From Pararhizobium sp. IMCC21322 (GTDB taxonomy: Bacteria > Pseudomonadota > Alphaproteobacteria > Rhizobiales > GCA-2746425): a stretch of 64,000 bases of DNA. This document shows, one piece after another, positions 1 through 58,370 of the stretch. The notes under the pieces are model-generated. The model was not told where the DNA came from, did not search any database, and was given only the letters and a program-made list of their open reading frames with translations. Location of the stretch: NCBI RefSeq assembly GCF_030758295.1, contig NZ_CP132335.1:620001-684000 (forward strand), read 5' to 3'. Position 1 is the first letter of the stretch; each line of letters starts with the position of its first letter. Made by a program: the position numbers and the translations under genes.

Positions 1-819
1 GATCAGCCGCGCACCGCCCAGCACGACAGCGGCAATAACTGATAATTCAAGGCCAACCAGCGAGAACGGGTCAGCCATACGGCCCACCGAACCATGAATA
101 ATTCCTGCAAGACCTGCCAGGGCACCAACATAGACATAGACAAAAAACTGAGTGCCTTTGACATTGATACCGAGCCGCCGGGCGCTTTCCAGCGACCCGC
201 CAATGGCATAAATGGATCGTCCTAGCATCGTCTTGTGCAAGATGAACCAGGTCATCAGGATAACGCCAATGAGCGCCACAAGCGCCCAGGGGAACGAGTA
301 GAAACTTCCGGCTTCAGTCGTCCCGCGTGCGATCACACCACGCGAGAAATCCCGCATTTCCGGTGGCAGGGCGGAGATGCGTTGCGAGCCAATAAAGGTC
401 AGCAGAAAGCCGCGAAACATGGATAAAGTGCCCAGCGTCACGATCAACGTTGGCAGTCCGAACACGGCAATAAACACGCCATTGATTGCACCCAGTGCCG
501 CGCCGATGCAAATCGACAGTGCAAAGATCAGCGGCCATGGCATATCCGGCCAGATCGCGAGCGCAAGCACTGAGGCTGAATACATCGCAAAAACAGCAAT
601 TGCGGTAAAACTGACATCAATACCGCCCGAGACAAGAACCAGCATGGCACCAACGGCCAGAATGCCGATGACGATCGATGCGCGCAGCAGATCAGACAAG
701 GTTGTGACGGACAGGAACAGCGGGTCTGACAGCGTTGCGATAATGCAAAACAGGATTATCACGCCTGCGACAAGCGTTTCGTTTCGGGTCAAGAAATCTT
801 TGGAAAACAAGCTACTCAT
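1..819 (-). CDS. CUT2-type sugar ABC transporter permease, partial (C-terminus beyond window)
   Basis: This is an inner-membrane permease of the ribose/AI-2 (CUT2) family; 273 codons are visible and the reading frame runs off the left edge of the window. The translation starts MSSLFSKDFLTRNETLVAG and contains the family-typical stretch LVSGGIDVSFTAIAVF and the cytoplasmic-loop motif GRSIYAIGGSLESARRLGI. Several hydrophobic segments alternate along the visible part. Its ATG overlaps the stop of the upstream ATPase gene (ATGA), so the two are translationally coupled. With the ATPase and binding protein it forms one importer, divergent from a SorC regulator and a catabolic operon. The substrate cannot be read from the sequence. 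Confidence 0.93.
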   Translation of the reverse strand, partial: MSSLFSKDFLTRNETLVAGVIILFCIIATLSDPLFLSVTTLSDLLRASIVIGILAVGAMLVLVSGGIDVSFTAIAVFAMYSASVLALAIWPDMPWPLIFALSICIGAALGAINGVFIAVFGLPTLIVTLGTLSMFRGFLLTFIGSQRISALPPEMRDFSRGVIARGTTEAGSFYSFPWALVALIGVILMTWFILHKTMLGRSIYAIGGSLESARRLGINVKGTQFFVYVYVGALAGLAGIIHGSVGRMADPFSLVGLELSVIAAVVLGGARLI

Positions 820-2315
820 GATGCCAAACTATGGGCTAGCTTTTCTTCGGTCGCTACTTCGCCAGCCAGTTCATCTGTAATTTTACCCTCACGCATGACC
901 AGAATACGATGACAGGTCGCAAGCAGTTCTGGCAGATCGTCAGAGATGACGATGATCCCGATCCCTTCATTTGCCAGTTCCCGTATGATGTCGTGGATAT
1001 CGGCTTTGGAGCCAACATCGACGCCAACACTTGGTCCATTCAAAATCAGCACACGGGGTGTCCGTGACAGCCAGCGCGCCAGCGCAACACGCTGCTGGTT
1101 GCCCCCGGACAGTGACTGGACCGGCGCTTCAATATCGGGTGCCTTGACCTTCAGGCGCTTCAGCCAGTCGGCAGCTTCCGCCACAAGTCCGCCCATGTTC
1201 AGGAACCCGGCAGCGCTCGTATGTTCATCCAGACGGCCGATTGCGACATTGCGCACAATGGATTGGCTCAGGAAAAGTCCTTCAGTCAAACGGTCTTCAG
1301 GCACATACCCGATGCGTGCGTGGGACGCTGCGACAGGATCGCCAATCGGGACAGTGTTTCCGTCAACCGTAATGGTGCCATGGTCGGGTTCGATCAGTCC
1401 AAACAGTGCCTTGGCCAGGGATGTTCGGCCGCTGCCCAAAAGCCCCGTGATCCCGAGCACTTCTCCTGACATAAGCTCAAAATTGATATCGTCGAAGGAG
1501 CCGGTCTTGCCCAGATCGCGCACGCTCATCAGCGTCCGCGCGTCGGCGATAACCGGACTTGGCCGCGCTTCAGGGACATCACGCCCAGTCATGTGGCGGG
1601 TCAGTGATTGGGTATCGAATTCTGATGCGGGACCTTCTGCAACCTTTTCACCATTGCGCAGCACAACAACCTTTTCGCTGACTTCCAGCACTTCGGCCAG
1701 TTTGTGACTGACAAAGATCACGGCAACACCGTCTTCTTTGAGGCGCCGAATGATGCGCAAAAGGGCGGTGACTTCTTTCTCGGTGAGCGCTGTTGTTGGC
1801 TCATCCATAATGATCAGACGCGCTTTTGACGCCAAGGCGCGACAGATGGCGACCAATTGCTTGTGGGCAACAGGTAAATCTTCCACCCGGGCATCCAGAT
1901 CGATTTTCACGCCGACACGATCCAGCGCCTCTTGCGCAATTTTGCGCGCCTTGCCACGTTCAAAGAACCGCTTGCCTCCGGTCAATTGTGTGGAAAAGGC
2001 GATGTTTTCATAAATGGTCAAATTGGGAAAAAGCGAGAAGTCCTGAAAGATGACCATCACACCCGCCGCAGCTGATATCCGCGGATTGAGCACTGATTGC
2101 ACCTTACCGCCTATGCGGATCGTGCCTTCTGTCGCTTGTTCAACGCCGGAAATGATTTTGATCAGTGTGGATTTACCGGAGCCATTCTCGCCTGCAAGGC
2201 AAACGGCTTCTCCGTGATTAACAGTGAAATCCACACCATCCAGGGCGGTTACACCCGCGTAACGTTTTGTGATCCCGGCAAGGTCAATAAACGCATCTGG
2301 ACTTACATCAGACAT
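816..2315 (-). CDS. CUT2-type sugar ABC transporter ATPase with two nucleotide-binding domains
   Basis: This protein of about 499 residues powers the adjacent permease. The N-terminal domain has Walker A GENGSGKST and Walker B LIIMDEPTTALT. The C-terminal domain has the standard signature LSGGNQQRVALARWL, but its Walker A reads GLLGSGRTS (Arg for the usual Lys) and its Walker B reads LILNGPSVGVDVGSK, so the usual Asp-Glu pair is Asn-Gly. A degenerate second site is common in this family, so one functional ATP site per subunit is the likely state. The start is taken at MSDVSPDAF. A longer frame reaches 2387, but it would translate the intergenic hairpin at 2359-2382. No strong ribosome binding site is seen, so the start is moderately sure. 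Confidence 0.93.
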   Translation of the reverse strand: MSDVSPDAFIDLAGITKRYAGVTALDGVDFTVNHGEAVCLAGENGSGKSTLIKIISGVEQATEGTIRIGGKVQSVLNPRISAAAGVMVIFQDFSLFPNLTIYENIAFSTQLTGGKRFFERGKARKIAQEALDRVGVKIDLDARVEDLPVAHKQLVAICRALASKARLIIMDEPTTALTEKEVTALLRIIRRLKEDGVAVIFVSHKLAEVLEVSEKVVVLRNGEKVAEGPASEFDTQSLTRHMTGRDVPEARPSPVIADARTLMSVRDLGKTGSFDDINFELMSGEVLGITGLLGSGRTSLAKALFGLIEPDHGTITVDGNTVPIGDPVAASHARIGYVPEDRLTEGLFLSQSIVRNVAIGRLDEHTSAAGFLNMGGLVAEAADWLKRLKVKAPDIEAPVQSLSGGNQQRVALARWLSRTPRVLILNGPSVGVDVGSKADIHDIIRELANEGIGIIVISDDLPELLATCHRILVMREGKITDELAGEVATEEKLAHSLAS

Positions 2316-2358
2316 GCTGGCCCGTAACTTTTTTTGAGGAGTAATAGTGAAATGCGGT

Positions 2359-2382
2359 CGGGGCAGCCAGACGGCCGCCCCG
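2359..2382 (-). terminator. Intergenic hairpin between binding-protein and ATPase genes
   Basis: Ten-base arms (CGGGGCAGCC on the plus strand, 2359-2368, against GGCCGCCCCG, 2373-2382) pair with one G-U and a four-base loop. There is no T-run. In binding-protein-dependent importers such a hairpin after the first gene usually acts as an mRNA stabiliser or partial terminator, giving more binding protein than membrane components. That role is inferred here. Confidence 0.6.
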
Positions 2383-2396
2383 CGCATTATACATGA

Positions 2397-3383
2397 TCAG
2401 AAAGGATAGTCTGCCATGTTTGCCTTGTTTACGTTCACCCAGGCTGAGCCATAGATAACCTTGCCATCGAGCGTAATATTCTCGTAGCCGGGCAGTCCAA
2501 GATCCATACCGTCAGTGACGGTTCCGCCATCCATAACCATAACTGCAAGTTTGTTCATGGCTTCACCGGCAACTGCAGGATCCCAGAAACCGATGCCGTC
2601 GACAGCACCTGTATCAAGATACTGGCCAGCGATTGACGGCAATGAGGTGCCGAAGATGCATGTGTCATCTTCTTTGCCGCGCTCTTCGATTGCACGGCCA
2701 ATACCTGCCACATCGGTGGAAGCAGACCCCTGCATACCCTTGATATTGGGGAATGCACGCAGAACTTCCTGCGCCTTGGTGTAGGCTTTCTCAGCATCAT
2801 CAGCAGTTTCGTTCTTGTCGCCGACGAGTGTCATGTTTGGATAGTTTGCCTTCTGGTGTGCAATGCCACCATCAACCCACTGATTATGCGTCTGTGAGGT
2901 CAATGAACCAACAAACACTGCATATTCGCCTTCGCCGCCCATGCATGTTGCCAGTTGTTCCATCAGATTGGCACCGAAGTCTTCATTCACGAATGCTTCG
3001 AGATCGTAATTTGTATTTTGCTGAGCTGCAGCTTCGTGCGTGATGACAATGATGCCTGCATCCATTGCGCGTTTGAGCACAGGCTCAAGAGCTTCCGGTG
3101 ACATGGGAACCACAGCAAGCGCATTCACGCCCTGTGCAATCATATCTTCAATCAGGGCAGCCTGCTGCTGTGGATCGGCCTGTGCGGGCCCGACCTGGAA
3201 TGCGTTGTTGCCAGATTCTTCAGCAAACTTTTTAACGCCTTCTTCCATCCGGTTGAACCATTGAATGCCAGCAATCTTTACAACTGTGGCAATGTCTTTG
3301 CCGCCGGTATGGCTGGCGGCAAAACCTGACAATGCCGTTCCAGCTACCAGTGCACTGGCAAGCAGTATCGTACGTTTTTTCAT
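2397..3383 (-). CDS. Periplasmic sugar-binding protein, LsrB/RhaS-like
   Basis: This 328-residue periplasmic-binding protein (Peripla_BP_4 type) starts with a signal peptide, roughly residues 1-22 ([20 protein letters not shown], cleavage near FAA-SH). By eye it aligns along its length with the AI-2 receptor LsrB, for example [28 protein letters not shown] and GIGFWD. The positions that contact AI-2 in LsrB are not kept: the Trp-Asp-Ser-Asp segment reads HEAA and the Asp-Gln pair before NQW reads Thr-His. An AI-2 ligand is therefore unlikely, and another small sugar or deoxysugar is more plausible. A good ribosome binding site (AGGGAGAA) precedes the ATG. It is first in its operon, divergent from the SorC regulator. 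Confidence 0.92.
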
Positions 3384-3522
3384 AGTAATTTCTCCCTTAA
3401 TCCGCCGCAGCGGACTGAATTTCTCAGGACCCGAAAATACGGTGCCTCACCTCCAGCAGCTATCGTGTTGCGTATCTTTTACAAAATCAGCGTGCGGTGC
3501 TGAAACGCCGCTTTGCAACACT

Positions 3523-3539
3523 TGTGCATTGACTGCACA
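3523..3539. promoter_or_regulatory. Candidate operator: inverted repeat in divergent promoter region
   Basis: TGTGCA (3523-3528) and TGCACA (3534-3539) form perfect six-base arms around a five-base spacer. They lie in the 229-base gap between the binding-protein gene and the SorC regulator gene. A further palindrome CACATGTG sits at 3537-3544. The position and symmetry fit an operator for the neighbouring SorC regulator. This is inference. Confidence 0.35.
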
Positions 3540-3612
3540 CATGTGACTATATAACGAAGAAAGGCGCGGTCAAGGCATTTATGAGGATCGGGCAGGGAGG
3601 TAAAAATCCGAC

Positions 3613-4587
3613 ATGTATGCAGGCAAGCGTCAGGCAGATAACGAAATAGCGCAGGCGGCGTGGCTCTACTATGTTGGAAATTTGAGCCAGCAGGAAGTCA
3701 GCGAACATCTCGGCATTTCACGCTTCAAGGTGTTGCGTATGCTGGCTGATGCGCGCGAGCAGGGACTGGTGCGCATATCGGTGGAACACCGCACATCCCG
3801 TACTCTTGCATTGGCCGACCGGCTGGCTGAGGCCTTTGATTTGAGCGAGGTGCAAGTTGCGCCCGTGCCAAGTGATGTTCTGGATGACAGCTATAGCCGC
3901 GCCGCAGTGGGCATGCTGGCAGCAGGCTATCTGGCGCGCATCGCTGCAACCGAAACCCCGGTAACGGTGGGCGTCGGTTGGGGCCGCACGCTGTCCGCGA
4001 TGGCCGATAATGTAACGGCGGTCACAAACCAGAATCTTACCTTTGTATCGCTCATGGGGTCTGTCACCCACGCAACCCATACAGCCCCTGGCGACGTTTG
4101 TGTGCGCCTGGCTGCGCAAACCGGCGGGCGGGCTCTGTTACTGCCAGCGCCGTTTGTCACCGACAGTGCCAGCGCCTGCGAAATGGTCATGTCACAGCGT
4201 CTGGTTGCCGAAGCGCTCACCGTTGCGCGCAAGGCGGATCACGCATTGATGAGTATTGGCGAATGCCGTGAAGGTGCGATCCTGTTCGAGAGCGGAATTT
4301 TCAGTGAGGAACAACTCCAGCAATTGCTGGACGCTGATGTGGTTGGCGATTGCTGCGGCGTTTTTTTCAAGGCCGACGGATCTGTCGCTGACATTGAATT
4401 AAACCGCAGCACGCCTTGCGTGAAACCACAGGAATTCACCGGCATGGATGCTGTTATCCTGGCCAGCGGCAAAGGCAAATGCGCAGCAACACTGGCGGTC
4501 TTGCGCGGAGGGTTTGTCAACCGCTTGATGGTGGATGAAGCGCTGGCGGTATTGTTATTGGAAAACGTCGAAGCAGGAATGAATTGA
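3613..4587 (+). CDS. SorC-family sugar-responsive transcriptional regulator
   Basis: This 324-residue regulator has an N-terminal helix-turn-helix (about residues 25-50, LSQQEVSEHLGISRFKVLRM) followed by the SorC/DeoR-like sugar-binding domain. Family hallmarks include VGVGWGRTLSAMAD, the C-terminal GCCGVFFKADG-like stretch and AVILASGKGK. SorC proteins (including LsrR) bind a phosphorylated sugar and usually control the adjacent operons. A GGGAGG sequence lies about 12 bases before the ATG. The gene leads a rightward operon, with its stop overlapping the next start, and diverges from the CUT2 importer, so it probably controls both. Confidence 0.92.
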   Translation: MYAGKRQADNEIAQAAWLYYVGNLSQQEVSEHLGISRFKVLRMLADAREQGLVRISVEHRTSRTLALADRLAEAFDLSEVQVAPVPSDVLDDSYSRAAVGMLAAGYLARIAATETPVTVGVGWGRTLSAMADNVTAVTNQNLTFVSLMGSVTHATHTAPGDVCVRLAAQTGGRALLLPAPFVTDSASACEMVMSQRLVAEALTVARKADHALMSIGECREGAILFESGIFSEEQLQQLLDADVVGDCCGVFFKADGSVADIELNRSTPCVKPQEFTGMDAVILASGKGKCAATLAVLRGGFVNRLMVDEALAVLLLENVEAGMN

Positions 4588-5435
4588 TGGAAGGTTTTGG
4601 CGTGCATACCAGCATGTGGACGATGTCGTGGGACCGTCCGGGATGCGAGAAGGCGGTTGCGAAGGCGGCATCCTACGGTATGGATTTTCTGGAAATTGCC
4701 CTTCTTGATCCCCCATCGGTGGATGCTGAACACAGTCGCAAGACGCTTGAGGCGCATCACATGCGCTCGGTCTGTTCTCTGGGTCTTCCGCAAGAGGTAT
4801 GGGCCTCTCACAACCCCGACGGGGCCGTTGATTTCCTCAAAATCGCGCTTGATAAATGCGCCGCGATGGGCTGCGAAGCCCTGTCTGGTGTCGTCTATGG
4901 CGGCATTGGCGAACGCAGTGGAAAGCCGCCAACCCAACAAGAGTTGGACAATGTTGCCGACGCGCTGACGCGTGCTGCAGCCTACGCCAGAACCCACGGC
5001 CTCCTGTTTGGTATTGAGCCGGTCAATCGCTATGAAACGCATCTCATAAACACCGGTTGGCAGGCGGTCGACATGATCGAGCGCATCGGTGCGGACAATA
5101 TGTTCGTGCATCTGGATACCTACCACATGAACATCGAGGAAAAAGGCATTGGGCAGGGTGTCATCGATGCGCGCGAGCATCTGAAATACATCCACCTTTC
5201 AGAATCTGATCGCGGCACACCGGGTGCCGGCACGATTGGTTGGGATGAGATTTTCGCGGCTCTGCGGGCAATCGATTTCAAGGGCGGACTGGCGATGGAA
5301 AGCTTTATCGACATGCCGCCGGAAATGGCTTTCGGGCTGTCGGTCTGGCGGCCGGTCGCATCGGGCGAAGCCGAAGTAATGGAAAACGGTCTGCCGTTTC
5401 TACGTAACAAAGCAAGGCAATACGGATTGATATGA
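4587..5435 (+). CDS. Sugar phosphate isomerase/epimerase (ketose 3-epimerase-like)
   Basis: This 282-residue TIM-barrel protein is of the xylose-isomerase-like (AP endonuclease 2) family, closest in pattern to D-tagatose/D-psicose 3-epimerases. The four expected metal ligands can be placed: Glu144 (FGIEPVNRYE), Asp177 (VHLDTYHMNIEE), His203 (YIHLSES) and Glu238 (GLAMESFID). Their spacing matches the known epimerases almost exactly. ATG 4587 is chosen because it overlaps the regulator stop as TGATG; a TTG three bases upstream also exists. The next gene starts inside its stop (ATGA). It probably epimerises a ketose before phosphorylation or cleavage. The substrate is unknown. Confidence 0.88.
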   Translation: MEGFGVHTSMWTMSWDRPGCEKAVAKAASYGMDFLEIALLDPPSVDAEHSRKTLEAHHMRSVCSLGLPQEVWASHNPDGAVDFLKIALDKCAAMGCEALSGVVYGGIGERSGKPPTQQELDNVADALTRAAAYARTHGLLFGIEPVNRYETHLINTGWQAVDMIERIGADNMFVHLDTYHMNIEEKGIGQGVIDAREHLKYIHLSESDRGTPGAGTIGWDEIFAALRAIDFKGGLAMESFIDMPPEMAFGLSVWRPVASGEAEVMENGLPFLRNKARQYGLI

Positions 5436-6472
5436 TAGATGCCAATAACGAAGCTGCGGGCAAAAATTCTTTGTTGGCTGATTTTTATCGTGAGATGCGC
5501 CGCGTGCGCACCTTTGAAGAGCGTGTCGGCGAATTGTTTGTGCGCGGACAATCGGCAGGCTCAATGCTGCATTTGTCGATTGGCGAAGAAAGTGCGGCGG
5601 TCGGTGTTTGCGCAAATATGCGTGACGGCGACACGTTCACAACCCACCATCGTGGCCATGGCATTTTTCTGGCGCGCGGGGCGGATCCAGCGCGCATGAT
5701 GGCGGAAATTGCCGGCAAGGAAGCCGGTTATTGCCACGGCAAGGGTGGCTCAATGCACATCGCGGATATGGGCCTTGGCCATTTGGGTGCCAATGCGATT
5801 GTCGGTGGCGGTATTCCTGCGGTGGTTGGTGCAGGTCTTGCGGCGCGCAATCGCAAAACAAATGCCGTTTCATTTGCCTTTTTTGGCGATGGCGCGACGG
5901 GCCAGGGCATCCTCTATGAAAGCATGAACATGGCCGCCCTTTGGAAGCTGCCCGTCATGTTTGTCTGTATCAACAATCAGTATGGCATGGGCACGCGCAT
6001 CGATCAGGCAACTGCAAATCCCAACCTTCATGAACGTGCCGAGGCATTCGGACTTGCCGCACGCACCGTTGATGGGTTGGATGTTGAAGATGTGAACGAG
6101 GCCGCAGCCGAATTAATCGCAGGTGCACGGGCCGGTCAGCCCGCATTTTTGGTCATCGATTGTTATCGTTTCTACGGCCACGCCCGCAAGGATAAATCGC
6201 CGTATCGCGACGAGACTGAGGAAGCCGAAGGACGCATGAAGGATCCGGTCACGCGCGCGCGTGAAAAACTCATTGCGTCCGGCATGATGAGTGAAGACGC
6301 ACTCGACGCATTGGACGCCGAAATTGCAACGGAAATGGACGCAACCATCGATTTCTCCATAGCTGAAAAAGAACCTCAACTGAACTCGATGTACCGCGAT
6401 GTCTACGCGCCGGGAGAACCGGAGCCTGAACCGGTGCGCACCCGGCTTGAACGTGTTTTGGCGCGGGAGTAG
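5432..6472 (+). CDS. Thiamine-diphosphate dehydrogenase E1 alpha subunit (acetoin/pyruvate dehydrogenase type)
   Basis: This 346-residue E1 alpha subunit belongs to the acetoin/pyruvate/branched-chain 2-oxoacid dehydrogenase family. The thiamine-diphosphate motif is complete: it begins GDGATGQG and ends VCINN, about 30 residues in total. Other family landmarks are HHRGHGIFLARG, the CHGKGGSMHIAD segment and the phosphorylation-loop equivalent YRFYGHARKDKSPYR. With the following beta subunit it would decarboxylate a 2-oxoacid or cleave an acyloin and pass the acyl group to lipoate on E2. Genes for E1alpha, E1beta and a hydrolase-containing E2 in this order are typical of acetoin dehydrogenase (aco) clusters. 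The sugar-pathway setting points to another substrate. Confidence 0.92.
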   Translation: MIDANNEAAGKNSLLADFYREMRRVRTFEERVGELFVRGQSAGSMLHLSIGEESAAVGVCANMRDGDTFTTHHRGHGIFLARGADPARMMAEIAGKEAGYCHGKGGSMHIADMGLGHLGANAIVGGGIPAVVGAGLAARNRKTNAVSFAFFGDGATGQGILYESMNMAALWKLPVMFVCINNQYGMGTRIDQATANPNLHERAEAFGLAARTVDGLDVEDVNEAAAELIAGARAGQPAFLVIDCYRFYGHARKDKSPYRDETEEAEGRMKDPVTRAREKLIASGMMSEDALDALDAEIATEMDATIDFSIAEKEPQLNSMYRDVYAPGEPEPEPVRTRLERVLARE

Positions 6473-6477
6473 GGGCT

Positions 6478-7461
6478 ATGGCACAGATCGAAACCAATTA
6501 TCGCGACGCTTTGCGTCTTGCCCTGACAGAAACAATGCAAGAGGACGACAATGTCATCATCATGGGTGAAGAGGTTGGCCGCTATGGCGGTGCCTACGGC
6601 GTTACCAAAGGACTGATAGATGAATTTGGCGAGAACAGGGTCATTGATACGCCCATCTCCGAGGCGGCGATTGTCGGTGCTGCGGTCGGCGCTGCAATGG
6701 CCGGGCTGCGCCCTGTGGCCGAGCTTATGTATGTTGATTTCATCGGCATGACGATGGATCAGCTTGCCAATCAGGCGGCCAAAATCCGTTATATGTTTGG
6801 CGGGCAGATCGGTGTTCCCATGGTTCTGCGCACCCAGGGCGGCACGGGCCGTTCGGCAGGCGCGCAACACAGCCAGAGCCTTGAAGCCTATGTCATGCAC
6901 ACGCCGGGGCTACGGCTTGCAATGCCGTCAACCGTCGATGATGCCTATCATTTGCTGCGCCAGGCCCTGAAGCAGCCAGACCCGGTTGTGTTTATCGAAC
7001 ACAAAGGGCTTTACACAATGAAAGGTACATTGGACACCGATGTGGAGCCCGTCGGTTGGGGCAAGGCGCGGGTGATGCGCGAAGGTGCGGATATTGTCAT
7101 CGTCAGCTATTCGCGACAGCTCCATCATGCACTTGCAGCCGCTGAAACCCTTGCCAAGGAAAATGGTATTCAGGCGGCAGTTGTTGATTTGCGGACACTT
7201 AATCCACTGGATTTTGATACCATCCGTCCGCTTGTGGAACAGGCGGGGCGTGCCATGGTCGTCTCAGAAGGCACGATGACCTCCGGTGTTGCTGCAGAGC
7301 TTGCAGCGCGCATCACCGAAGAATGTTTCGATTTCCTTGAAGACCCGGTCGTGAGGGTGGCCGGTGAAGACATTCCGATATCCGTGTCTCCGCTCCTGGA
7401 AAAGCATTCGGTACCGACGCCTGAATTTATCACTGACGCCGTGCGGATGATGCTGAAATGA
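6478..7461 (+). CDS. Thiamine-diphosphate dehydrogenase E1 beta subunit (acetoin/pyruvate dehydrogenase type)
   Basis: This 327-residue E1 beta subunit is the partner of the alpha subunit encoded just upstream. It starts five bases after that gene, with a GGGAG sequence inside the alpha stop region. Typical motifs include IIMGEEVGRYGGAYGVTKGL, DTPISEAAIVGAAVGAAMAG and LRTQGGTGRSAGAQHSQSLE (substrate and cofactor pocket), and a C-terminal transketolase domain with the LNPLDFDTI and VVSEG stretches. The length is normal for AcoB/PdhB. Its stop overlaps the E2 start (ATGA). The three dehydrogenase genes are surely one transcription unit. The E3 subunit is not in the window and would have to be shared with another complex. 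Confidence 0.92.
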   Translation: MAQIETNYRDALRLALTETMQEDDNVIIMGEEVGRYGGAYGVTKGLIDEFGENRVIDTPISEAAIVGAAVGAAMAGLRPVAELMYVDFIGMTMDQLANQAAKIRYMFGGQIGVPMVLRTQGGTGRSAGAQHSQSLEAYVMHTPGLRLAMPSTVDDAYHLLRQALKQPDPVVFIEHKGLYTMKGTLDTDVEPVGWGKARVMREGADIVIVSYSRQLHHALAAAETLAKENGIQAAVVDLRTLNPLDFDTIRPLVEQAGRAMVVSEGTMTSGVAAELAARITEECFDFLEDPVVRVAGEDIPISVSPLLEKHSVPTPEFITDAVRMMLK

Positions 7462-8729
7462 ACGCGGTGACACAGGTCAAATTGCCGATGCCTCGCCTTG
7501 GCGAGACGATGGAACAGGGCACAATTTCAAATTGGCTGATCAAACCCGGCGATGATTTCGCGCGGGGCGACCCGTTGCTGGAACTGGAAACCGACAAGAC
7601 GCTTGTGGAATATCCAGCGCTCGGCTCCGGCAAATTGATCGAAACATTGGTCGGGCCCGGCGATGTCGTGGATGTGGGCGCACCCATCGCCATCATAGAA
7701 ACACCGGATATGTGGGACAGTGTCGCTGATACGCCAGAATCTCCAGAAGCACCAGAAGCGGCAGAAGCGCCAGAGACAGCAGCTCCGATAGACAAACCTT
7801 CAACGCTCAGCACAGTGCCAGATCGCGAAATTGCTGGCGTGCGGGCAACGCCGCTGGCACGGCGTCTGGCGCGCAAGGGCGGTGTTGATCTTGCTGATGT
7901 TAAAGGAACAGGTCGACGTGGGCGCGTCGAAGCGCGGGATGTTGAATCTCATCTTGAGACCGGCGCATCTTCATTGTCGTCTGCCCGGATCAACCGCACC
8001 GGCGCAAACGATCTGAGCACTGTAATATTCATTCACGGTTTTGCCGGCCTTGGTTCCAACTGGGCCGCGTTGCGCGCAAGCCTGCAGAAAACCGGCCCGC
8101 AAAAAACCGGCCTGAAGACGATCGCACCCGACATGCCGGGCCACGGGCAAAACAGTGCAGAGGCAAACGGCGTTGAGGATTGTATCTCATGGCTCGAAAC
8201 ATTGCTGAACGAGCAAGACGGACCCGTGCATCTTGTCGGACATTCGCTCGGCGCACATGTTGCCACTCTTGCCGCGGGCCGTGCGCGTTCAAAAGTTGGC
8301 CGTTTGACATTAGTTGCACCAGCTGGATGTGGTCATGAAATCAATGGCGACTTCCTGCATGGCATGGCACACGCCCATTCGGCAGGCGAATTGGCGCATC
8401 TGCTTCGCCTGCTTGGTCCAAAGGCTTCGAAATTGCCGGCGGATGCCATCGAAACCATGTCGAATGAACTGGCCAAAGGCCGTTTGATCACGCTGGCCGA
8501 TGCGGTCGCGCGCGGCAATATGCAGTGCATTGACACAATTTCGGCAGCCGGTGAGCTGAGCCAGAACATACCGGTCACAGCAATCTTTGGGGTCGCTGAT
8601 ATGATTATTCCCAAAGAGCATATGTTTAATATGCCACCACGGGTCAGCTCGCATATCGTTCGCACAGGACACATGCCGCAATGGGATTCACCAGCCCTGC
8701 TGGAAAAATTGATCCTGCAGACTAGCTGA
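7458..8729 (+). CDS. E2-like protein: lipoyl domain, E1/E3-binding domain and alpha/beta-hydrolase domain (AcoC-like)
   Basis: This is a 423-residue three-part protein. Residues 1-80 form a lipoyl domain with the lipoylation site Lys47 in LETDKTLVEY. Residues about 130-165 look like a peripheral subunit-binding domain (RATPLARRLARKGGVDL, GTGRRGRVEARDV). From about 190 to the end it is an alpha/beta-hydrolase with FIHGFAGLGSNW, the nucleophile elbow GHSLGAH and a C-terminal His in GHMPQWD. The usual 2-oxoacid-dehydrogenase acyltransferase core is absent, as in acetoin dehydrogenase AcoC, where the hydrolase-fold domain replaces it. A Pro/Glu/Ala-rich linker (about 95-115) follows the lipoyl domain. 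It completes the E1 pair encoded upstream. Confidence 0.9.
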   Translation: MNAVTQVKLPMPRLGETMEQGTISNWLIKPGDDFARGDPLLELETDKTLVEYPALGSGKLIETLVGPGDVVDVGAPIAIIETPDMWDSVADTPESPEAPEAAEAPETAAPIDKPSTLSTVPDREIAGVRATPLARRLARKGGVDLADVKGTGRRGRVEARDVESHLETGASSLSSARINRTGANDLSTVIFIHGFAGLGSNWAALRASLQKTGPQKTGLKTIAPDMPGHGQNSAEANGVEDCISWLETLLNEQDGPVHLVGHSLGAHVATLAAGRARSKVGRLTLVAPAGCGHEINGDFLHGMAHAHSAGELAHLLRLLGPKASKLPADAIETMSNELAKGRLITLADAVARGNMQCIDTISAAGELSQNIPVTAIFGVADMIIPKEHMFNMPPRVSSHIVRTGHMPQWDSPALLEKLILQTS

Positions 8730-8787
8730 CTGACTAACTTATTGACTGGCTAACTGACGTGGCCGCTATCTATTGGGAGGAAAACAG

Positions 8788-10281
8788 ATGGCATATTTTC
8801 TGACAGCCGATGGTGGCACCGAAAGCCTGCGCACGCGCATCTACGACATCGAAGGTCATTGCGTTGCCTCGCATGCAGAACCTTACGATACGAATTTTTT
8901 GCCCGGTGCACGTGCTGAACAGCAGCCCGAAGACTGGTGGGACTGCCTGTGCAAGGCAACCCGCGCCAGCCTGGCCAAAGCCGGATTGAAACCGGATCAA
9001 ATCGAAGCCATGGCCTGTGCCACCACATGCTGCACCGTTGTCGCGCTGGATGGCGCTGGCAATCCGCTGCGTCCGGCTTTGATGTGGATGGATGTGCGCG
9101 CGTCCGATGAGGCCGCAGCGGTGCTGGAGACCGGCGATGAGCGCCTGAAATTCAATGGCAATGGCAGCGGACCGGTCTCTGCGGAGTGGATGATTCCAAA
9201 AGCCTTGTGGATCAAGCGCAACGAACCGGACATCTACGATAAGGCCGTGACCATCTGCGAATATCAGGATTTTCTGACGCTGCGGCTGACAGGTGAGCGC
9301 TGTGCGTCGCTGAACAATGTCGGCCTGCGCTGGCACTATGATAACCGGGATGGCGGCTGGGCGGAAACACTGGTCACCAAACTGGGGATGGCTGATCTTG
9401 TTGAAAAATGGCCGTCACGCGTGGCAGCGCCAGGTGAAGTGGTTGGCAATCTGACGGCACAAGCAGCTGAGGCCCTCGGCCTGACCACACAAACAAAACT
9501 GGTGCAAGGTGGTGCCGATGCGCTGATCGGCATGATCGGCCTTGGCGTCTACCAGCCCGGTCAATTGTGCATGATTACAGGGTCCTCTCATCTGCAATTT
9601 GGTGTCACAGAACAGTCGTTTAACGCCAATGGCATGTGGGGTGCCTACCCGGATATCGTTTATCCGGATCGTTACATCATTGAGGGCGGTCAGACTTCGA
9701 CCGGGTCGATTATCAATTGGCTGAAGCGCTTTGTCGGCGGCGAGATGGACTTTGAGGACATGAACCGCAAGGCGGCGCTACTGCCGCCCGGATCGGAAGG
9801 CCTTGTGGTGCAGGACCACTTCCAGGGCAATAGGACACCCCATACGGATGCCTTGTCACGCGGTGCTATCACTGGACTTACGCTTGCGCACGAACCACAT
9901 CACGTGTTCCGCGCCATTATCGAGGGCATCTCTTTTGGCACCCGCGCCATTCTGGATGCCTTCGCCAGGGGTGGCTATCAGGGCACCGAAATGGTTGTCG
10001 GCGGCGGCGCAACCGGCTCTGATTTGTGGATGCAGATCCATGCCGATGTGGCCGGTATCCCACTGCGCATTCCAGCCTCAACTGACGGCCCATCCCTCGG
10101 CTCGGCCATACTGGCCGCACATGGAGCTGGACATTTTGCCACCATCGATGAAGGCATCGAGACCATGGTCAAACCTGGACGGCTGATTGAACCGGACCCA
10201 AAAGCCACACTGGCCTATGACGAAATCTACCAAAAGTACCAAGCCCTTTATCCAGCGCTCAAAGGCGCTCTTGATGCCTAG
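8788..10281 (+). CDS. FGGY-family carbohydrate kinase
   Basis: This 497-residue sugar kinase starts at the ATG that follows a GGGAGGAAAACAG ribosome binding site; a frame five residues longer would include that site. FGGY landmarks are the N-terminal phosphate-binding loop ADGGTESLRTRIYD, the catalytic base Asp244 in the GGADALIG motif, and the C-terminal nucleotide-binding stretch VVGGGATGSDLWMQIHADV. It resembles ribulokinase/LsrK-type members, and the substrate cannot be assigned. It is the last gene of the rightward catabolic operon, 58 bases after the E2 gene. It presumably phosphorylates the imported sugar or the ketose made by the epimerase. Confidence 0.9.
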   Translation: MAYFLTADGGTESLRTRIYDIEGHCVASHAEPYDTNFLPGARAEQQPEDWWDCLCKATRASLAKAGLKPDQIEAMACATTCCTVVALDGAGNPLRPALMWMDVRASDEAAAVLETGDERLKFNGNGSGPVSAEWMIPKALWIKRNEPDIYDKAVTICEYQDFLTLRLTGERCASLNNVGLRWHYDNRDGGWAETLVTKLGMADLVEKWPSRVAAPGEVVGNLTAQAAEALGLTTQTKLVQGGADALIGMIGLGVYQPGQLCMITGSSHLQFGVTEQSFNANGMWGAYPDIVYPDRYIIEGGQTSTGSIINWLKRFVGGEMDFEDMNRKAALLPPGSEGLVVQDHFQGNRTPHTDALSRGAITGLTLAHEPHHVFRAIIEGISFGTRAILDAFARGGYQGTEMVVGGGATGSDLWMQIHADVAGIPLRIPASTDGPSLGSAILAAHGAGHFATIDEGIETMVKPGRLIEPDPKATLAYDEIYQKYQALYPALKGALDA

Positions 10282-10410: not shown

Positions 10411-13197
10411 CTACTCTGCCGCTTCCAGCGCATCCCCGCGTTCGATCTTCGCAGCACAGAATTTGAATTCCGGGATTTTTCCGAAAGGGTCAAGCTTTGG
10501 ATTGGTCAACACATTGGCGGGGCTTTCATTGAAGCAGAAGGGCATGAAAATCATGCCATCGGCCACTTCACGATCAGCGCGCAACATGGCTGAGACCGTG
10601 CCACGCCGGGTTTCCACATTGACCCTGTCGCCAATGCTCAAACCCAGGCGCTCGATCTCGCGCGGGTTCATGGCCGCAATTCCTTCCGGTTCAATCGCGT
10701 CAAGCACGCTGGCGCGGCGCGTCATGGCGCCAGTGTGCCAGTGCTCCAGCAATCTGCCCGTTGTCAGCACCATGGGATACTCTGCATCAGGCACTTCGTC
10801 CGGGGCCAGCAGATCAGCGGGCACCAGTTTGCCACGTCCGTCCGGGGTTGGAAAACCGTCGACGAAAATCACCGCATTGCCGGGCTTATCTTCGCTGTCT
10901 GCCGGGTAGGTGACGCAATCTTCCCTGGTGAGGCGTGACCACGGAATGTTGGTCAAGGACGGCATCACGCTCATCATCTCGGTGTAAACCTCGCTGACAT
11001 CTACATAGCGCCAGTCAAGGCCCATGCGATCAGCAAGATCGACAATGATATTCCAGTCCTGGCGGGCCTCTCCCGGCGGGTCCAGCGCTGGTCGGCCAAG
11101 TTGCACCTGGCGATTTGTGTTGGTGAATGTACCGAGCTTTTCCGCATGGGCGGACGCGGGCAACACCACATCTGCATGCCATGCGGTTTCGGTCAGGAAG
11201 ATATCCTGCACCACAAGATGCGTCAGCTTTGCCAGCGCCGCCCGTGCGTGATTTTGATCCGGGTCAGACATGGCCGGGTTTTCACCCATTATATACATGC
11301 CGTGAATTTTATCGGCGTGCACCGCATCCATAATTTCAACGACGGTCAGCCCGCGTTTTTGATCAATCGTGCGGCCCCAGACATCTTCAAATTGCTCGCG
11401 GATGGGCGCGCTTTCAACGCTCTGATAATCCGGCAAAAACATGGGAATGAGCCCGGCATCAGACGCGCCCTGCACATTGTTCTGGCCACGCAGCGGGTGC
11501 AGCCCTGTGCCCTCGCGGCCAATCTGGCCTGTGATCAACGCCATGGCAATCAGGCACCGCGCATTGTCCGTGCCATGGGTGTGCTGTGAAATGCCCATGC
11601 CCCAGAAAATGAGAGACCGGTTGGACGTCGCATAAAGCCGCGCCACAGCACGCAGCGTATCGGCGGGTATGCCGCAAACCTCTGCCATCGCCTCCGGTGC
11701 AAAGTCCTTGACCTTGTCTTTCAGCGCATTGAAGCCGGACACATTGGCCTGAATATATTGCTGGTCGTAGAGTTGCTCTTCGATAATCACATGCAGAAAT
11801 GCGTTCAGCATGGCCACATCAGTGCCGGGCTTGAACTGCAGGGAATGCTCCGCAAAGCGCATCAAATCCTGCTGGCGCGGGTCTATGACCACAAGCTTTG
11901 CGCCGTTCTTCGCCGCCTGTTTGAAATAGGTGGCAGCCACCGGATGGTTGGTTGTGGGCCGTGCGCCAATCACAATAATGCAGTCTGCAACCATCGCGTC
12001 TGTAAAAGGCGCAGACACGGCTCCGGAGGAAACACCCTCCATCAGCGCTGCGACAGACGAGGCATGGCAAAGCCGTGTGCAATGATCGACATTGTTCGTT
12101 CCAAACCCCAGGCGAACCAGTTTCTGAAACAGATAGGCCTCTTCATTGGAGCCCTTGGCTGAGCCAAAACCCGACAGCGCATCGCCGCCATGGGCTTGTT
12201 CAATCGCCATCAGGCCTTCGGCGGATTTGGCCATGGCTTCTTCCCATGTGGCTTCTCTGAAAATGTCTGAAACCTTCATGAAACGCATGTCGATGTCGCC
12301 GCGTTTTGGCGCGTCATCGCGGCGGATCAGCGGCTTGGTCAGGCGCTCATCGCTCATTACATAATCAAATCCAAAGCGGCCTTTGACGCAAAGCCGGTTT
12401 TCATTGGCCGGCCCGTTACGCCCATCCACCTGAACGATCTTGTTGTCTTTGACATTGACGATGGTCTGACAGCCAACACCGCAGAACGGGCACACACTAT
12501 CGACTGATTTGTCAAAGTCACTGATCACCCGTTTTTTGCCAGCTGTATCCATCAGTGATTTTTCAAACAGGGCACCGGTCGGGCAGGCCTGCACGCATTC
12601 GCCGCAGGTCACACATGTCGACAGGCCCATCGGGTCATGAATATCGAAGACCGGAACAGTACGCGCTCCGCGTCCGGCCATGCCGATCACATCATTTACC
12701 TGCACTTCGCGGCAGGCGCGTACGCACAAGCCGCAGGCAATACAGGCATCCAGATTCACAGCAATGGCGGGGTTGCTGATGTCATTGGTATCAGCGCCGT
12801 CTTCAAATTTGCCGGGCAACCGATCAGAACCAGAAATGCCAAACGTGTCCGCCCAATTCCAAAAAGCGCTTTGATTATCCGCTGTTTCATCGCGCTCAGG
12901 CATATCAGCGGCCAGCAGTTCAAACACCATGGCTCTGCTTTTTTCTGCGCGCTCTGTGGCAGTATTCACAACCATGCCGTCGGTCGGTTTGCGAATGCAG
13001 GAGGCAGCCAGTGTGCGCTCGCCATCAACATCCACCATACAGGCGCGGCAATTGCCATCAGCACGGTAACCGGGTTTGTCCAGATGGCACAGATGCGGAA
13101 TATCCACGCCTTCGCGCTTCGCAACCTGCCAGATTGTCTCGCCTTCATTGGCGCTGACAGTTTTGCCATTGAGGCTGAAATTGATTTTATCAGACAT
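10411..13197 (-). CDS. fdsA: NAD-dependent formate dehydrogenase alpha (catalytic) subunit
   Basis: This 928-residue molybdo- or tungsto-enzyme subunit oxidises formate to CO2. An N-terminal NuoG-like 2Fe-2S domain (Cys near 37, 50, 53 and 67) is followed by two 4Fe-4S ferredoxin motifs (CIACGLCVRAC and CVTCGECVQAC). Next comes the catalytic 4Fe-4S site (CPFCGVGC) with the bis-MGD domain. The active-site pair Cys377-His378 lies in TRLCHASS, so the metal ligand is Cys, not selenocysteine. The C-terminal dinucleotide-binding domain is complete. ATG 13197 overlaps the beta-subunit stop (TGATG); GTG 13200 is an alternative. No fdhD-like or delta-subunit gene follows, as the next gene is convergent. 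Confidence 0.95.
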   Translation of the reverse strand: MSDKINFSLNGKTVSANEGETIWQVAKREGVDIPHLCHLDKPGYRADGNCRACMVDVDGERTLAASCIRKPTDGMVVNTATERAEKSRAMVFELLAADMPERDETADNQSAFWNWADTFGISGSDRLPGKFEDGADTNDISNPAIAVNLDACIACGLCVRACREVQVNDVIGMAGRGARTVPVFDIHDPMGLSTCVTCGECVQACPTGALFEKSLMDTAGKKRVISDFDKSVDSVCPFCGVGCQTIVNVKDNKIVQVDGRNGPANENRLCVKGRFGFDYVMSDERLTKPLIRRDDAPKRGDIDMRFMKVSDIFREATWEEAMAKSAEGLMAIEQAHGGDALSGFGSAKGSNEEAYLFQKLVRLGFGTNNVDHCTRLCHASSVAALMEGVSSGAVSAPFTDAMVADCIIVIGARPTTNHPVAATYFKQAAKNGAKLVVIDPRQQDLMRFAEHSLQFKPGTDVAMLNAFLHVIIEEQLYDQQYIQANVSGFNALKDKVKDFAPEAMAEVCGIPADTLRAVARLYATSNRSLIFWGMGISQHTHGTDNARCLIAMALITGQIGREGTGLHPLRGQNNVQGASDAGLIPMFLPDYQSVESAPIREQFEDVWGRTIDQKRGLTVVEIMDAVHADKIHGMYIMGENPAMSDPDQNHARAALAKLTHLVVQDIFLTETAWHADVVLPASAHAEKLGTFTNTNRQVQLGRPALDPPGEARQDWNIIVDLADRMGLDWRYVDVSEVYTEMMSVMPSLTNIPWSRLTREDCVTYPADSEDKPGNAVIFVDGFPTPDGRGKLVPADLLAPDEVPDAEYPMVLTTGRLLEHWHTGAMTRRASVLDAIEPEGIAAMNPREIERLGLSIGDRVNVETRRGTVSAMLRADREVADGMIFMPFCFNESPANVLTNPKLDPFGKIPEFKFCAAKIERGDALEAAE

Positions 13198-14885
13198 CAC
13201 AATTCATCCCTGAAATATGTCAACAGATGATTGACCGGATTGGGTGCCGCCTGACCCAGACCACAGATCGATGCATCACGCATGACAGTCTCCAGATCCC
13301 GAATTGTCTCTTCATCCAGTTTGCCTTTGGCGCGCAGAAGTTTTGCCAGCTTTTCTGTGCCGCCCCGGCAGGGCGTGCATTGCCCGCAGCTTTCATGAGC
13401 GAAGAAATCAATCAGATTAATCACGGCGTCTTTGACGCTGTCATTTTCAGACAGGATTACCACGGCATGTGATCCCACAAACGCACCGTGCTGGAACAGA
13501 TCATCGCCAAAATCCAGCGGGATCGCATCCATTGAGGCGGGCAGAATACCGCCAGATGCGCCACCTGGCAGATAGGCTTTGAAACTGTGCCCCTCTGCCA
13601 TGCCGCCACAATGCTCTTCAATCAGTTCACGCACGGTGATGCCAGCCGGGGCAAGCTTGACACCCGGCTTGGCCACACGGCCGGAAACAGACCAGGAGCG
13701 CAGTCCGGGATGACCCGGTTTGCCCTGGTCGGCAAACCATTGCGGCCCGTTTTCAACGATGTCGCGAATCCACCACAGCGTTTCCACATTGTGGTTCAGC
13801 GTTGGTCTGCCGAACAGACCCACTTCGGCAATGTAAGGCGGGCGGTGGCGTGGCAGCCCGCGCTTGCCTTCAATGGATTCGATCATCGCGCTTTCTTCGC
13901 CGCAAATATAAGCGCCAGCGCCGCGCCGCAATTCTATGAATCCGGGTTCAATAATGCCGGCGTCTTCCAGCGCAGATATCTCGGTGCGCAGGATTTCCAG
14001 CACGGCGGGGTATTCATCGCGCATGTAAAGATAGATGCGTTCAGCGGCGACACAGTGGGCTGCAATTAACGCGCCTTCAAACATGCGGTGCGGATCACTT
14101 TCCAGATAATGCCGGTCTTTAAAGGTTCCCGGTTCCCCTTCATCGCCATTAATGGTCATAAGCCGTGGCGCCGGATAGGCTTTGACAAATCCCCACTTTT
14201 TACCAACGGGAAAACCGGCGCCACCAAGCCCGCGCAAGTTTGCCTCGCCCAGGGTTGAAATCAGCGCGTCGGTTTCAAGTTCTCCGTTTTTCAAACGCTC
14301 CAGAACCCGGTATCCACCCAGGTCGCGATAGGCTTTCAGATCCACATGATTTGGCACCAAGACATCTGTGTCGCCATTGTCAGCCATGGTCAGCAGTTGC
14401 GCCGAGTCCGCATGGTCCACTTCCCGGTTGCCGATGCGCGCCGCAGGAGCAGCAGCGCAACGACCCATGCAGGGCGCGCGCGCTATTCGGATTTGAGTTT
14501 TGTCCGCAGTGTCTTCCAATTGGGCTATCAGCGTCTCCGCGCCAGCCATCATGCAAGACAGGGATTCACACACGCGGATGGTCAGCGGCGCAGGCGCGTT
14601 CTCGCCCTCACGCACAATATCAAAATGATCGTAGAACGAGGCCACCTCATATATTTCGGCCTGGCTCAGTTTCAACTCCTCGGCCAGCGCTCGCAAATGC
14701 GCGGCTGACAAGCAGCCATGGCGATCCTGTATAAGGTGCAGAAATTCGATCAGAAGGTCGCGCCTGCGTGGCGCATCGCGCAATAAATCCTGCACGTCAG
14801 AAAGCGCTGCCTCATCCAGTTGACGGCCCTTTGGCTTTGCGTTGTTTCGCCGCCCGGCCTGTTTGGTATCAACTTTGTTCAGCAC
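13197..14885 (-). CDS. fdsB: NAD-dependent formate dehydrogenase beta subunit (fused NuoE-NuoF type)
   Basis: This 562-residue diaphorase subunit carries electrons from the alpha subunit to NAD+. Residues about 25-160 match NuoE, with 2Fe-2S ligands Cys106, Cys111, Cys139 and Cys143. The rest matches NuoF, with the FMN/NADH-binding stretch LRGLGGAGFPVGKKWGF, INGDEGEPGTFKDRH, GAYICGEESAMIESIEGKRG and the 4Fe-4S site ESCGQCTPCRGG plus a Cys in DASICGLG. In many FdsGBA enzymes these halves are separate proteins. The fused form is known from Methylobacterium FDH1. The start is GTG with GGGAG seven bases upstream. It is the first gene of the two-gene operon. Confidence 0.95.
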   Translation of the reverse strand: MLNKVDTKQAGRRNNAKPKGRQLDEAALSDVQDLLRDAPRRRDLLIEFLHLIQDRHGCLSAAHLRALAEELKLSQAEIYEVASFYDHFDIVREGENAPAPLTIRVCESLSCMMAGAETLIAQLEDTADKTQIRIARAPCMGRCAAAPAARIGNREVDHADSAQLLTMADNGDTDVLVPNHVDLKAYRDLGGYRVLERLKNGELETDALISTLGEANLRGLGGAGFPVGKKWGFVKAYPAPRLMTINGDEGEPGTFKDRHYLESDPHRMFEGALIAAHCVAAERIYLYMRDEYPAVLEILRTEISALEDAGIIEPGFIELRRGAGAYICGEESAMIESIEGKRGLPRHRPPYIAEVGLFGRPTLNHNVETLWWIRDIVENGPQWFADQGKPGHPGLRSWSVSGRVAKPGVKLAPAGITVRELIEEHCGGMAEGHSFKAYLPGGASGGILPASMDAIPLDFGDDLFQHGAFVGSHAVVILSENDSVKDAVINLIDFFAHESCGQCTPCRGGTEKLAKLLRAKGKLDEETIRDLETVMRDASICGLGQAAPNPVNHLLTYFRDEL

Positions 14886-25139: not shown

Positions 25140-25184
25140 TTGTATCCAAGCCGGAGGCCAGGCTAATTAAATCCAAACCGGAGG
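25131..25184. repeat. Tandem 27-bp duplication carrying a ribosome binding site
   Basis: Two adjacent 27-base units (25131-25157 and 25158-25184) differ at four positions. Each ends in CCGGAGG. The first unit also contains the stop codon of the aldo/keto reductase gene. The second CCGGAGG is five bases from the ATG of the next gene and so serves as its ribosome binding site. Confidence 0.75.
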
Positions 25185-25189
25185 TTTGA

Positions 25190-30135: not shown

Positions 30136-30147
30136 GGTGCACAGAGC

Positions 30148-33502: not shown

Positions 33503-33527
33503 GGTCTTGGTACATCTCCCGCAAACC

Positions 33528-34769: not shown

Positions 34770-34772
34770 ATT

Positions 34773-58238: not shown

Positions 58239-58370
58239 TTATCAGTGTATTTCGATAGCGAATCTAATCAAATCTCACCTCGCCCTGAACGCAATCCATG
58301 GTGTTGATTGAGTCCAGGGGGTTGGTAAAACCGGCTGGTTTATGAAAATGCAGCCGAGACCTTTGGTGAC

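What the first reader, a model, noticed from the sequence alone, without database searches (positions are those of the whole stretch)
816..10281. Sugar-catabolic divergon built on an acetoin-dehydrogenase-type complex
A CUT2 importer, SorC regulator, ketose 3-epimerase-like protein, E1alpha, E1beta, a lipoyl/hydrolase E2 and an FGGY kinase are encoded together, with no aldolase. Acetoin dehydrogenases cleave CH3-CO-CHOH-R compounds to acetyl-CoA plus an aldehyde. A 1-deoxyketose or its phosphate has exactly this headgroup, so the set could cleave a (phosphorylated) deoxyketose to acetyl-CoA and an aldose phosphate such as glyceraldehyde 3-phosphate. I know of no described pathway with this gene set; the operon layout is seen, the chemistry is inferred.
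Basis: partly seen in the sequence, partly recalled or inferred. Interest (0 to 1): 0.75.

Follow-up and report, generated by a model that had tools for sequence, protein, structure and literature searches.

The report
Sugar operon with acetoin-dehydrogenase-like complex
A conserved set of genes in marine and soil bacteria appears to import an unusual five-carbon sugar, phosphorylate it and split it with an enzyme complex normally known from acetoin breakdown, a route with no description that we could find.

Summary
The gene set is real and correctly placed. It continues beyond the window (permease 2, DhaK, DhaL, a convergent aldo-keto reductase) and is conserved. In 44 loci with a close E1, the FGGY kinase lies next to, and on the strand of, the E1α–E1β–E2 block in all 39 that could be measured; one locus has it elsewhere. 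The E1 pair is a clade of its own (100/100), apart from the AcoC-family reference set (100/100), with an invariant active-site-loop signature GH[A/G]R[K/M]DKSPYR. The nearest solved binding protein whose ligand I know binds D-ribulose; the window protein keeps five of six contacts, with Asp for Glu at the sixth. The epimerase keeps all catalytic residues. I conclude: a ketopentose-type pathway in which a phosphorylated ketose is oxidatively cleaved to an acyl-CoA plus an aldose phosphate. A 1-deoxypentulose 5-phosphate giving acetyl-CoA plus glyceraldehyde 3-phosphate is the single most likely version (about 0.35–0.4), with published precedent in reverse. Ordinary ketopentose giving glycolyl-CoA is not excluded; two minimal operons argue mildly for it, and one genome has the importer/epimerase block without any E2 match. 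Substrate and products are unproven.

The parts
1..819 (-). CUT2 permease 1 (cut by the window edge; permease 2, DhaK and DhaL follow on the same strand left of the window, then a convergent AKR on the other strand)
   Evidence: open ORF; L037: AKR, DhaL, DhaK, perm2, perm1; Pfam Dak1, Dak2, Aldo_ket_red
816..2387 (-). CUT2 ATPase with two nucleotide-binding domains
   Evidence: ABC_tran, two stretches; best NCBIfam models xylose/arabinose/galactofuranose/allose-type ATPases, all below cut-off
2397..3383 (-). Periplasmic binding protein, RhaS/LsrB/AauA type, D-ribulose-like pocket (K36 W42 E117 H166 D195 S222)
3523..3553 (+). Conserved intergenic element with inverted repeat TGTGCA-N5-TGCACA, overlapping a sigma70-like promoter match on the minus strand (3573..3546); probable SorC operator
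   Evidence: exact in 17 of 252 loci (some are repeat extracts of one genome), 0 in 100 shuffles of the window; the pattern was drawn by eye from seven of these sequences; promoter match 1 found against 0.3 expected; function inferred
3613..4587 (+). SorC-family regulator
   Evidence: Sugar-bind PF04198; LsrR 127.8 bits, DeoR 179.9 bits, both below cut-off
4587..5435 (+). Ketose 3-epimerase-like TIM barrel (ORF from TTG 4584, likely start ATG 4587)
   Evidence: (PDB 7dz2 D-tagatose 3-epimerase, 476.6 bits)
5432..6472 (+). E1 alpha, TPP-dependent, loop GH250-A-R252-K-D-K255-SPYR
6478..7461 (+). E1 beta
7458..8729 (+). AcoC-like E2: lipoyl domain (K47), E3-binding domain, alpha/beta hydrolase (S263, D381, H405)
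8788..10281 (+). FGGY kinase, xylulokinase/ribulokinase-like
   Evidence: XylB 290.3 bits, below cut-off 380.25

Best explanation
A ketopentose-type catabolic operon. A SorC-controlled CUT2 importer takes up a ketopentose or close analogue. A ketose 3-epimerase, where present, sets C3. The FGGY kinase phosphorylates the ketose. A distinct clade of acetoin-dehydrogenase-like E1 (TPP) then cleaves C2–C3, passing the two-carbon acyl unit via the lipoyl arm of the AcoC-like E2 to CoA, with a borrowed E3 and NAD, and releasing an aldose phosphate. The likeliest single substrate is 1-deoxyribulose/1-deoxyxylulose 5-phosphate, giving acetyl-CoA plus glyceraldehyde 3-phosphate: in effect a catabolic reversal of DXP-type carboligation. 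DhaK/DhaL and AKR would serve side or entry reactions. Shown by sequence: gene content, conservation, clade, motifs. Inferred: substrate, order of steps, products.
For: FGGY within 474 bp of, and on the strand of, E1/E2 in 39 of 39 measurable loci, with different importers and with or without the epimerase or DhaKL. Small operons L159/L160 show importer, SorC, E1α, E1β, E2 and FGGY with no epimerase, DhaKL or AKR recognised. TPP motif visible by eye; lipoyl and hydrolase-triad residues kept. E1 clade 100/100, apart from the acetoin-type set; at loop residue 252 R in 39 of 39 versus E in 12 of 15 acetoin-type E1α, suited to an anionic substrate. Binding protein: nearest relative whose ligand I know binds D-ribulose, five of six contacts identical. 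Precedent from PMC3424233 passages: PDH forms 1-deoxyxylulose, AceE mutants (Q408R, L633R, E636Q/G) rescue a dxs mutant and raise DXP, XylB phosphorylates 1-deoxyxylulose. A plain ketopentose 5-phosphate would not need this complex (inference).
Against: No biochemical data. Epimerase residues corresponding to the O1 contacts Glu158, His188 and the Arg are conserved. L159/L160 binding proteins have the complete D-ribulose contact set KWEHES, so their substrate may carry an ordinary C1-OH. The genome of L060 (Primorskyibacter flagellatus) has importer, SorC, epimerase, DhaKL and AKR but no E2 match at E 1e-30, so that block can exist without the complex. Basic residues at the loop positions also occur in another E1 group (L162, L164: GHSKSDRNRYR). 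DhaK/DhaL (21 and 22 of 44 loci) have no clear role in the scheme. A FucA-like aldolase lies in the extract of 11 of 44 loci, close to the block in L205, L239 and L240. Wild-type PDH did not make enough DXP in vivo; only mutants did.
Confidence: 0.5

Rival explanations
1. The substrate is an ordinary ketopentose (D-ribulose/D-xylulose type). After phosphorylation the complex cleaves HOCH2-CO-CHOH-R to glycolyl-CoA plus glyceraldehyde 3-phosphate: an oxidative, CoA-linked counterpart of transketolase or phosphoketolase cleavage.
For: D-ribulose-type pocket, complete in L159/L160; epimerase O1-contact residues kept; kinase related to ribulokinase/xylulokinase; extra His72 next to the conserved HRGHG motif in E1α, 39 of 39, where acetoin-type E1α has Thr, 15 of 15.
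Against: D-ribulose 5-phosphate enters the pentose phosphate pathway directly, so the complex would bring little. In the window clade the contact equivalent to AauA Glu196 is Asp in all 30 resolved rows, against Glu in all 51 rows of the distant proteins.
Confidence: 0.2
2. The complex cleaves an unphosphorylated or branched alpha-hydroxyketone, releasing dihydroxyacetone or a triose that DhaK/DhaL phosphorylates (as methylacetoin yields acetone with acetoin dehydrogenase; recalled).
For: DhaK and DhaL accompany the block in 21 and 22 of 44 loci, also where no epimerase was recognised (L231, L232, L205).
Against: The FGGY kinase, not DhaKL, is the constant partner; no DhaK was seen in the extracts of the SDR-type operons.
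Confidence: 0.13
3. The E1/E2 is an ordinary acetoin or 2-oxoacid dehydrogenase that is merely co-transcribed with a sugar operon.
For: Domain make-up equals AcoABC; E2 just passes NF011457 (311.5 versus 307); E1β passes the broad NF006667 model; L060 shows that the sugar block can stand without it.
Against: E1 forms its own 100/100 clade; E1α and E1β share only 39–47% identity with the acetoin-type set; persistent kinase linkage in several genomic layouts.
Confidence: 0.12
4. A variant autoinducer-2 (DPD) uptake and breakdown system, with E1/E2 in place of LsrF.
For: SorC + CUT2 + FGGY layout and RhaS/LsrB-type binding protein; LsrB structures among the closest folds.
Against: LsrB ligand residues (recalled: K35, D116, D166, Q167, P220, A222) align to K, E, T, H, S, S in the window protein; kinase AI-2 model 191.6 versus cut-off 528; no LsrF or LsrG recognised by eye in the gene lists (not searched by model).
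Confidence: 0.04

Closest known systems
Acetoin dehydrogenase complex (AcoA/AcoB/AcoC)
   Same: E1α/E1β plus E2 with lipoyl, E3-binding and alpha/beta-hydrolase domains; C–C cleavage next to an alpha-hydroxyketone (inferred here)
   Different: E1 in a separate 100/100 clade; loop GHAR[K/M]DKSPYR (GHGR in two rows) instead of mostly GHFEGD; linked to FGGY kinase, SorC and sugar importer; no AcoR/AcoX seen
D-ribulose uptake and utilisation systems Aau (EHEC) and Rbl (C. rodentium)
   Same: CUT2 importer whose binding protein shares the pocket (five of six contacts); FGGY kinase in Rbl (PMC12307932)
   Different: Rbl has a kinase and a KpsF-like isomerase, no TPP/lipoyl complex in the locus as described; Glu196 is Asp in the window clade
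Lsr autoinducer-2 system
   Same: SorC-type regulator, CUT2 importer, FGGY kinase; LsrF also yields acetyl-CoA plus a triose phosphate (recalled)
   Different: No LsrF/LsrG recognised; LsrB ligand residues not kept
Ketose 3-epimerases (D-tagatose 3-epimerase PDB 7dz2; Methylomonas L-ribulose 3-epimerase)
   Same: Metal, catalytic and O1-contact residues conserved; 476.6 bits to 7dz2
   Different: Here part of a kinase plus E1/E2 operon; true substrate unknown

Membership tests
Acetoin dehydrogenase complex (Aco) | E2 of AcoC type (lipoyl + E3-binding + alpha/beta hydrolase) | tested here: met
   NF011457 311.5 bits, cut-off 307; K47 and S263/D381/H405 present
Acetoin dehydrogenase complex (Aco) | E1 groups with AcoAB | tested here: not met
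   44 operon rows and 15 acetoin-type rows are each one side of a 100/100 branch; most of the 15 are acetoin-type by E2 family only
Acetoin dehydrogenase complex (Aco) | acoR/acoX in the neighbourhood | tested here: not met
   By eye only: none in the window and L037 gene lists, whereas AcoR- or AcoX-like ORFs were recognised by eye in L191–L193
Acetoin dehydrogenase complex (Aco) | Acetoin as substrate | not testable with these tools
   needs enzyme assay
Pyruvate dehydrogenase complex | 2-oxoacid dehydrogenase acyltransferase domain in E2; PDH E1α equivalog score | tested here: not met
   E2 carries Abhydrolase, no catalytic acyltransferase domain listed; TIGR03182 324.9 versus cut-off 393.85
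Ketose 3-epimerase | Metal ligands, two catalytic Glu, His/Arg/Glu at O1–O2 | tested here: met
   E145, E151, D178, H181, H204, R210, E239 in 32 of 32 close and 61 of 61 farther rows; D-psicose epimerase model NF051856 156.9, below its cut-off 300
D-ribulose-type binding protein (AauA) | Six ligand contacts K37 W43 E118 H167 E196 S223 | tested here: inconclusive
   five of six identical; E196 is D195 in the window clade
Lsr AI-2 system | LsrB ligand residues, LsrK score | tested here: not met
   residue list recalled
Xylulokinase (XylB) | TIGR01312 cut-off 380.25 | tested here: not met
   290.3 bits: same superfamily, other subgroup

The most novel reading that the evidence does not exclude
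A dedicated pathway that degrades 1-deoxypentuloses, imported or made from deoxypentoses of SAM origin, by kinase plus an E1/E2/E3 complex: 1-deoxyxylulose 5-phosphate + CoA + NAD+ to acetyl-CoA + glyceraldehyde 3-phosphate + NADH, the catabolic counterpart of DXP synthase.
Probability: 0.35. Interest if true: 0.75.

Novelty: new variant of a known kind. Interest (0 to 1): 0.6.

Why it matters
If right, a lipoyl complex known for acetoin and 2-oxoacids also serves sugar breakdown, giving acetyl-CoA (or glycolyl-CoA) and a triose phosphate in one step without an aldolase. The genes are in named isolates of roseobacters, Hoeflea and rhizobia, and in SAR116 single-cell genomes, so the claim can be tested at once. 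It would also give deoxyketoses, a class for which my searches listed no bacterial catabolic route, a place in carbon cycling.

Tried and rejected
AI-2: rejected as main reading on binding-protein residues and kinase score; LsrF/LsrG not recognised. Acetoin operon: rejected on tree and neighbours. MtnK/MtnA/aldolase genes (methylthioribose or 5-deoxyribose salvage, names by eye from sequence) lie beside the block in L070, L072, L077, L083, L239 (MtnK in 5 of 44; in L239 only a MtnK-like gene and the aldolase were matched) and, as a piece at the contig end, L069; and beside the epimerase block in L067, L074, L086. I considered a SAM-sugar theme; it stays a lead, not evidence. The idea that Asp195 tracks the presence of E1/E2 failed: L159/L160 are E1-linked and have Glu. 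The idea that the basic loop is unique failed for L162/L164. Eight epimerase loci (L060, L065, L066, L067, L071, L073, L074, L086) showed no E1/E2 after the epimerase. A whole-genome search with E2 (ten loci asked, nine genomes held, L065 not) found an E2 elsewhere for six of the seven held (41–44%) and none for L060. No second structure prediction was run: an E1 monomer without cofactor would not answer the substrate question.
Full report
Observation. The window lies at G000:C1:620001–684000 of a 5.25-Mb single-contig genome. The closest named records by the epimerase are 'Rhizobiales bacterium IMCC20636' (95%) and Hoeflea halophila (89%). Left of the window the importer arm continues with permease 2, DhaK and DhaL, and a convergent aldo-keto reductase lies behind (L037; Pfam Dak1, Dak2, Aldo_ket_red). 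No E3 gene is in the operon; three genes over the lipoamide-dehydrogenase cut-off lie elsewhere.

Conservation. Neighbourhood maps cover 44 loci over 6 kb with a close E1, window included; repeats of a genome already present (L227, L228, L230) and short extracts (such as L006–L009) were left out; near relatives are among them, so they are not independent. By: E1β 44 of 44, E2 42 (the two misses, L062 and L078, are cut by contig ends), SorC-type regulator 41, FGGY 39 over threshold. The five others are L037 (extract cut, but the window itself shows the kinase 58 bases on), L062, L076 and L078 (contig ends; in L076 a partial kinase hit at 76% is seen) and L154, where the kinase sits with the epimerase in another contig of the same genome (L073). 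In all 39 measured loci the kinase is on the same strand, 30–474 bases from the E1/E2 block.

Variants. (a) Window type: importer, SorC, epimerase, DhaKL, AKR (epimerase at 60% or more in 20, AKR in 17 of 44). (b) The same importer (binding protein 81–82% identical) and DhaKL with no epimerase recognised (L231, L232). (c) A different importer (12 of 44), a CMD/AhpD-like small protein with a CxxC motif (10 of 44), and one or two SDRs: nine plasmid records hold a close E1α, and in the five that I viewed it is annotated on plasmids of Tritonibacter mobilis, Nitratireductor, Rhizobium sp. CIAT894, Shinella and Sinorhizobium meliloti Ak57 pSymB. (d) A FucA-like aldolase close to the block, with DhaKL in L205 and L240, and CUT1-like genes by eye in L239 and L240; in all, 11 of 44 loci have such an aldolase in the extract, seven of them of window type (L058, L059, L061–L064, L068). 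(e) Small: importer, SorC, E1/E2, kinase (L159, L160; L160 also has a dehydrogenase-like ORF by eye). So kinase plus E1/E2 is the core; the rest is accessory. Conversely, eight epimerase loci lack E1/E2 after the epimerase; six of the seven genomes that could be searched have an E2 elsewhere, with E1 71–78% identical to the window, and one (L060) has no E2 match.

E1/E2. In a tree of 64 joined E1α+E1β rows the 44 operon rows are one side of a branch with 100/100 support, as are 15 acetoin-type rows. The 15 come from 19 AcoC-family regions: L204 was set among 'other', L205 is an operon row, L208 and L209 showed no E1. Only for L191–L193 did I recognise AcoR or AcoX by eye; the rest are acetoin-type by E2 family. 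The root is a midpoint, and three 'other' and two acetoin-type rows have long branches whose place is unsure. All 44 operon E1α rows carry GH[A/G]R[K/M]DKSPYR (39 rows; the five plasmid rows). The acetoin-type rows mostly read GHFEGD; at residue 252, R in 39 of 39 stands against E in 12 of 15. By alignment the His of this loop matches the His before the phosphorylated Ser of human PDH E1α (residue roles recalled). Counter-evidence: L162/L164 also have basic residues there. Of 38 operon loci given, the lipoyl Lys is kept in 37 of 37 aligned, the Ser in 36 of 36, Asp and His in 35 of 36 (one gap each).

Binding protein. A predicted model (mean pLDDT 88.3) matched 5bra, 3d02 and 9i1m best; I do not know ligands for the first two. 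9i1m is AauA, which binds D-ribulose with KD 1.98 uM; the paper's results passages list contacts Lys37, Trp43, Glu118, His167, Glu196 and Ser223 (PMC12307932, passages, outline and section 6 seen). The window protein has K36, W42, E117, H166, D195, S222. Position 195 is Asp in all 30 resolved of 35 rows at 70% identity or more, and Glu in 51 of 51 farther rows, including two E1-linked ones (some rows are repeat extracts). The paper says Glu196 and Ser223 bind the C5 hydroxyl; for a furanose I suspect the exocyclic hydroxymethyl is meant, which I could not check.

Epimerase and kinase. All seven catalytic and O1/O2 residues are conserved in 32 of 32 close and 61 of 61 farther rows. In the Methylomonas enzyme O1 is held by Glu158, His188 and an Arg (PMC8167858, passages). 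Thus an O1-bearing ketose is the natural reading, though that paper's reference list includes a title on tagatose 3-epimerase recognising deoxy sugars (title only). The kinase matches ribulokinase and xylulokinase models below their cut-offs.

Precedent. PMC3424233 (passages): purified PDH makes 1-deoxyxylulose from pyruvate and glyceraldehyde; AceE variants Q408R, L633R, E636Q and E636G rescue dxs mutants while wild-type aceE does not, and the mutant genes raise DXP about 20-fold; XylB phosphorylates 1-deoxyxylulose; [quoted passage not shown] The reaction proposed here is the reverse, drawn forward by acyl transfer to lipoate (inference).

Regulation. A 31-base element with TGTGCA-N5-TGCACA lies at 3523–3553 between the divergent arms, exact in 17 of 252 loci (some of them repeat extracts of one genome) and in no shuffle of the window. 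It was drawn by eye from seven of these sequences. A minus-strand promoter-like site overlaps it (1 found, 0.3 expected).

Verdict. Real, conserved, undescribed in the listings searched. General mechanism 0.5; 1-deoxypentulose version about 0.35–0.4; glycolyl-CoA version 0.2.

Noticed in passing
window 10411–14885 (−): Formate dehydrogenase-type genes (by eye) directly right of the operon, convergent with it; not seen beside the operon in L056, L057, L058 and L070.
   Followed up: no
window 27402–38013: A second SorC-type regulator with CUT1 importer, zinc-type alcohol dehydrogenase, mannitol-dehydrogenase-like and Gfo/Idh-like genes (by eye): probably a polyol locus.
   Followed up: no
window 24108–26269: Aldo-keto reductase and DUF4432-like gene pair, possibly another deoxysugar/fucose-type locus (by eye).
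   Followed up: no
window 54492–61636: ATP-dependent DNA ligase, ligase-associated exonuclease-like and Lhr-like helicase genes (by eye), resembling a known DNA end-repair set.
   Followed up: no
window 41576–45163: 1195-aa sodium/solute-symporter fused to a histidine kinase and receiver (CbrA-like, by eye).
   Followed up: no
L036:10006–10860 (genome 3556006–3556860): A second ketose-3-epimerase copy (73% identical) in a CUT1 + LacI + SDR locus (by eye) of the same genome.
   Followed up: partly
L243:13587–13922 and equivalents in L153, L156, L229, L235, L236, L241, L242, L244, L245: A CMD/AhpD-like protein with CxxC (seen in L156 and L243) encoded right after the lipoyl E2; AhpD is known to take electrons from lipoyl E2 elsewhere (recalled), so a lipoyl-linked redox role is worth testing.
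   Followed up: partly
L245:13985–15303: In S. meliloti Ak57 the E2 region is annotated as two separate ORFs (hypothetical protein and alpha/beta hydrolase), so that gene may be split there.
   Followed up: no
L162:9366–12684, L164:9925–13389: A further AcoC-type E1/E2 group (E1α 44–45%, E1β 45–48% identical to the window) with loop GHSKSDRNRYR, in another ABC-transporter context; substrate unknown.
   Followed up: partly
L069, L070, L072, L077, L083: MtnK/MtnA-like genes (methylthioribose salvage type, by eye) beside the E1/E2 operon, in SAR116 and other Alphaproteobacteria; in L069 only a piece of MtnK at the contig end.
   Followed up: partly
NZ_CP084754.1 (hit H7): A record named Roseateles sp. 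XES5 (a betaproteobacterial genus) also carries a close E1α (72.8%); not viewed.
   Followed up: no
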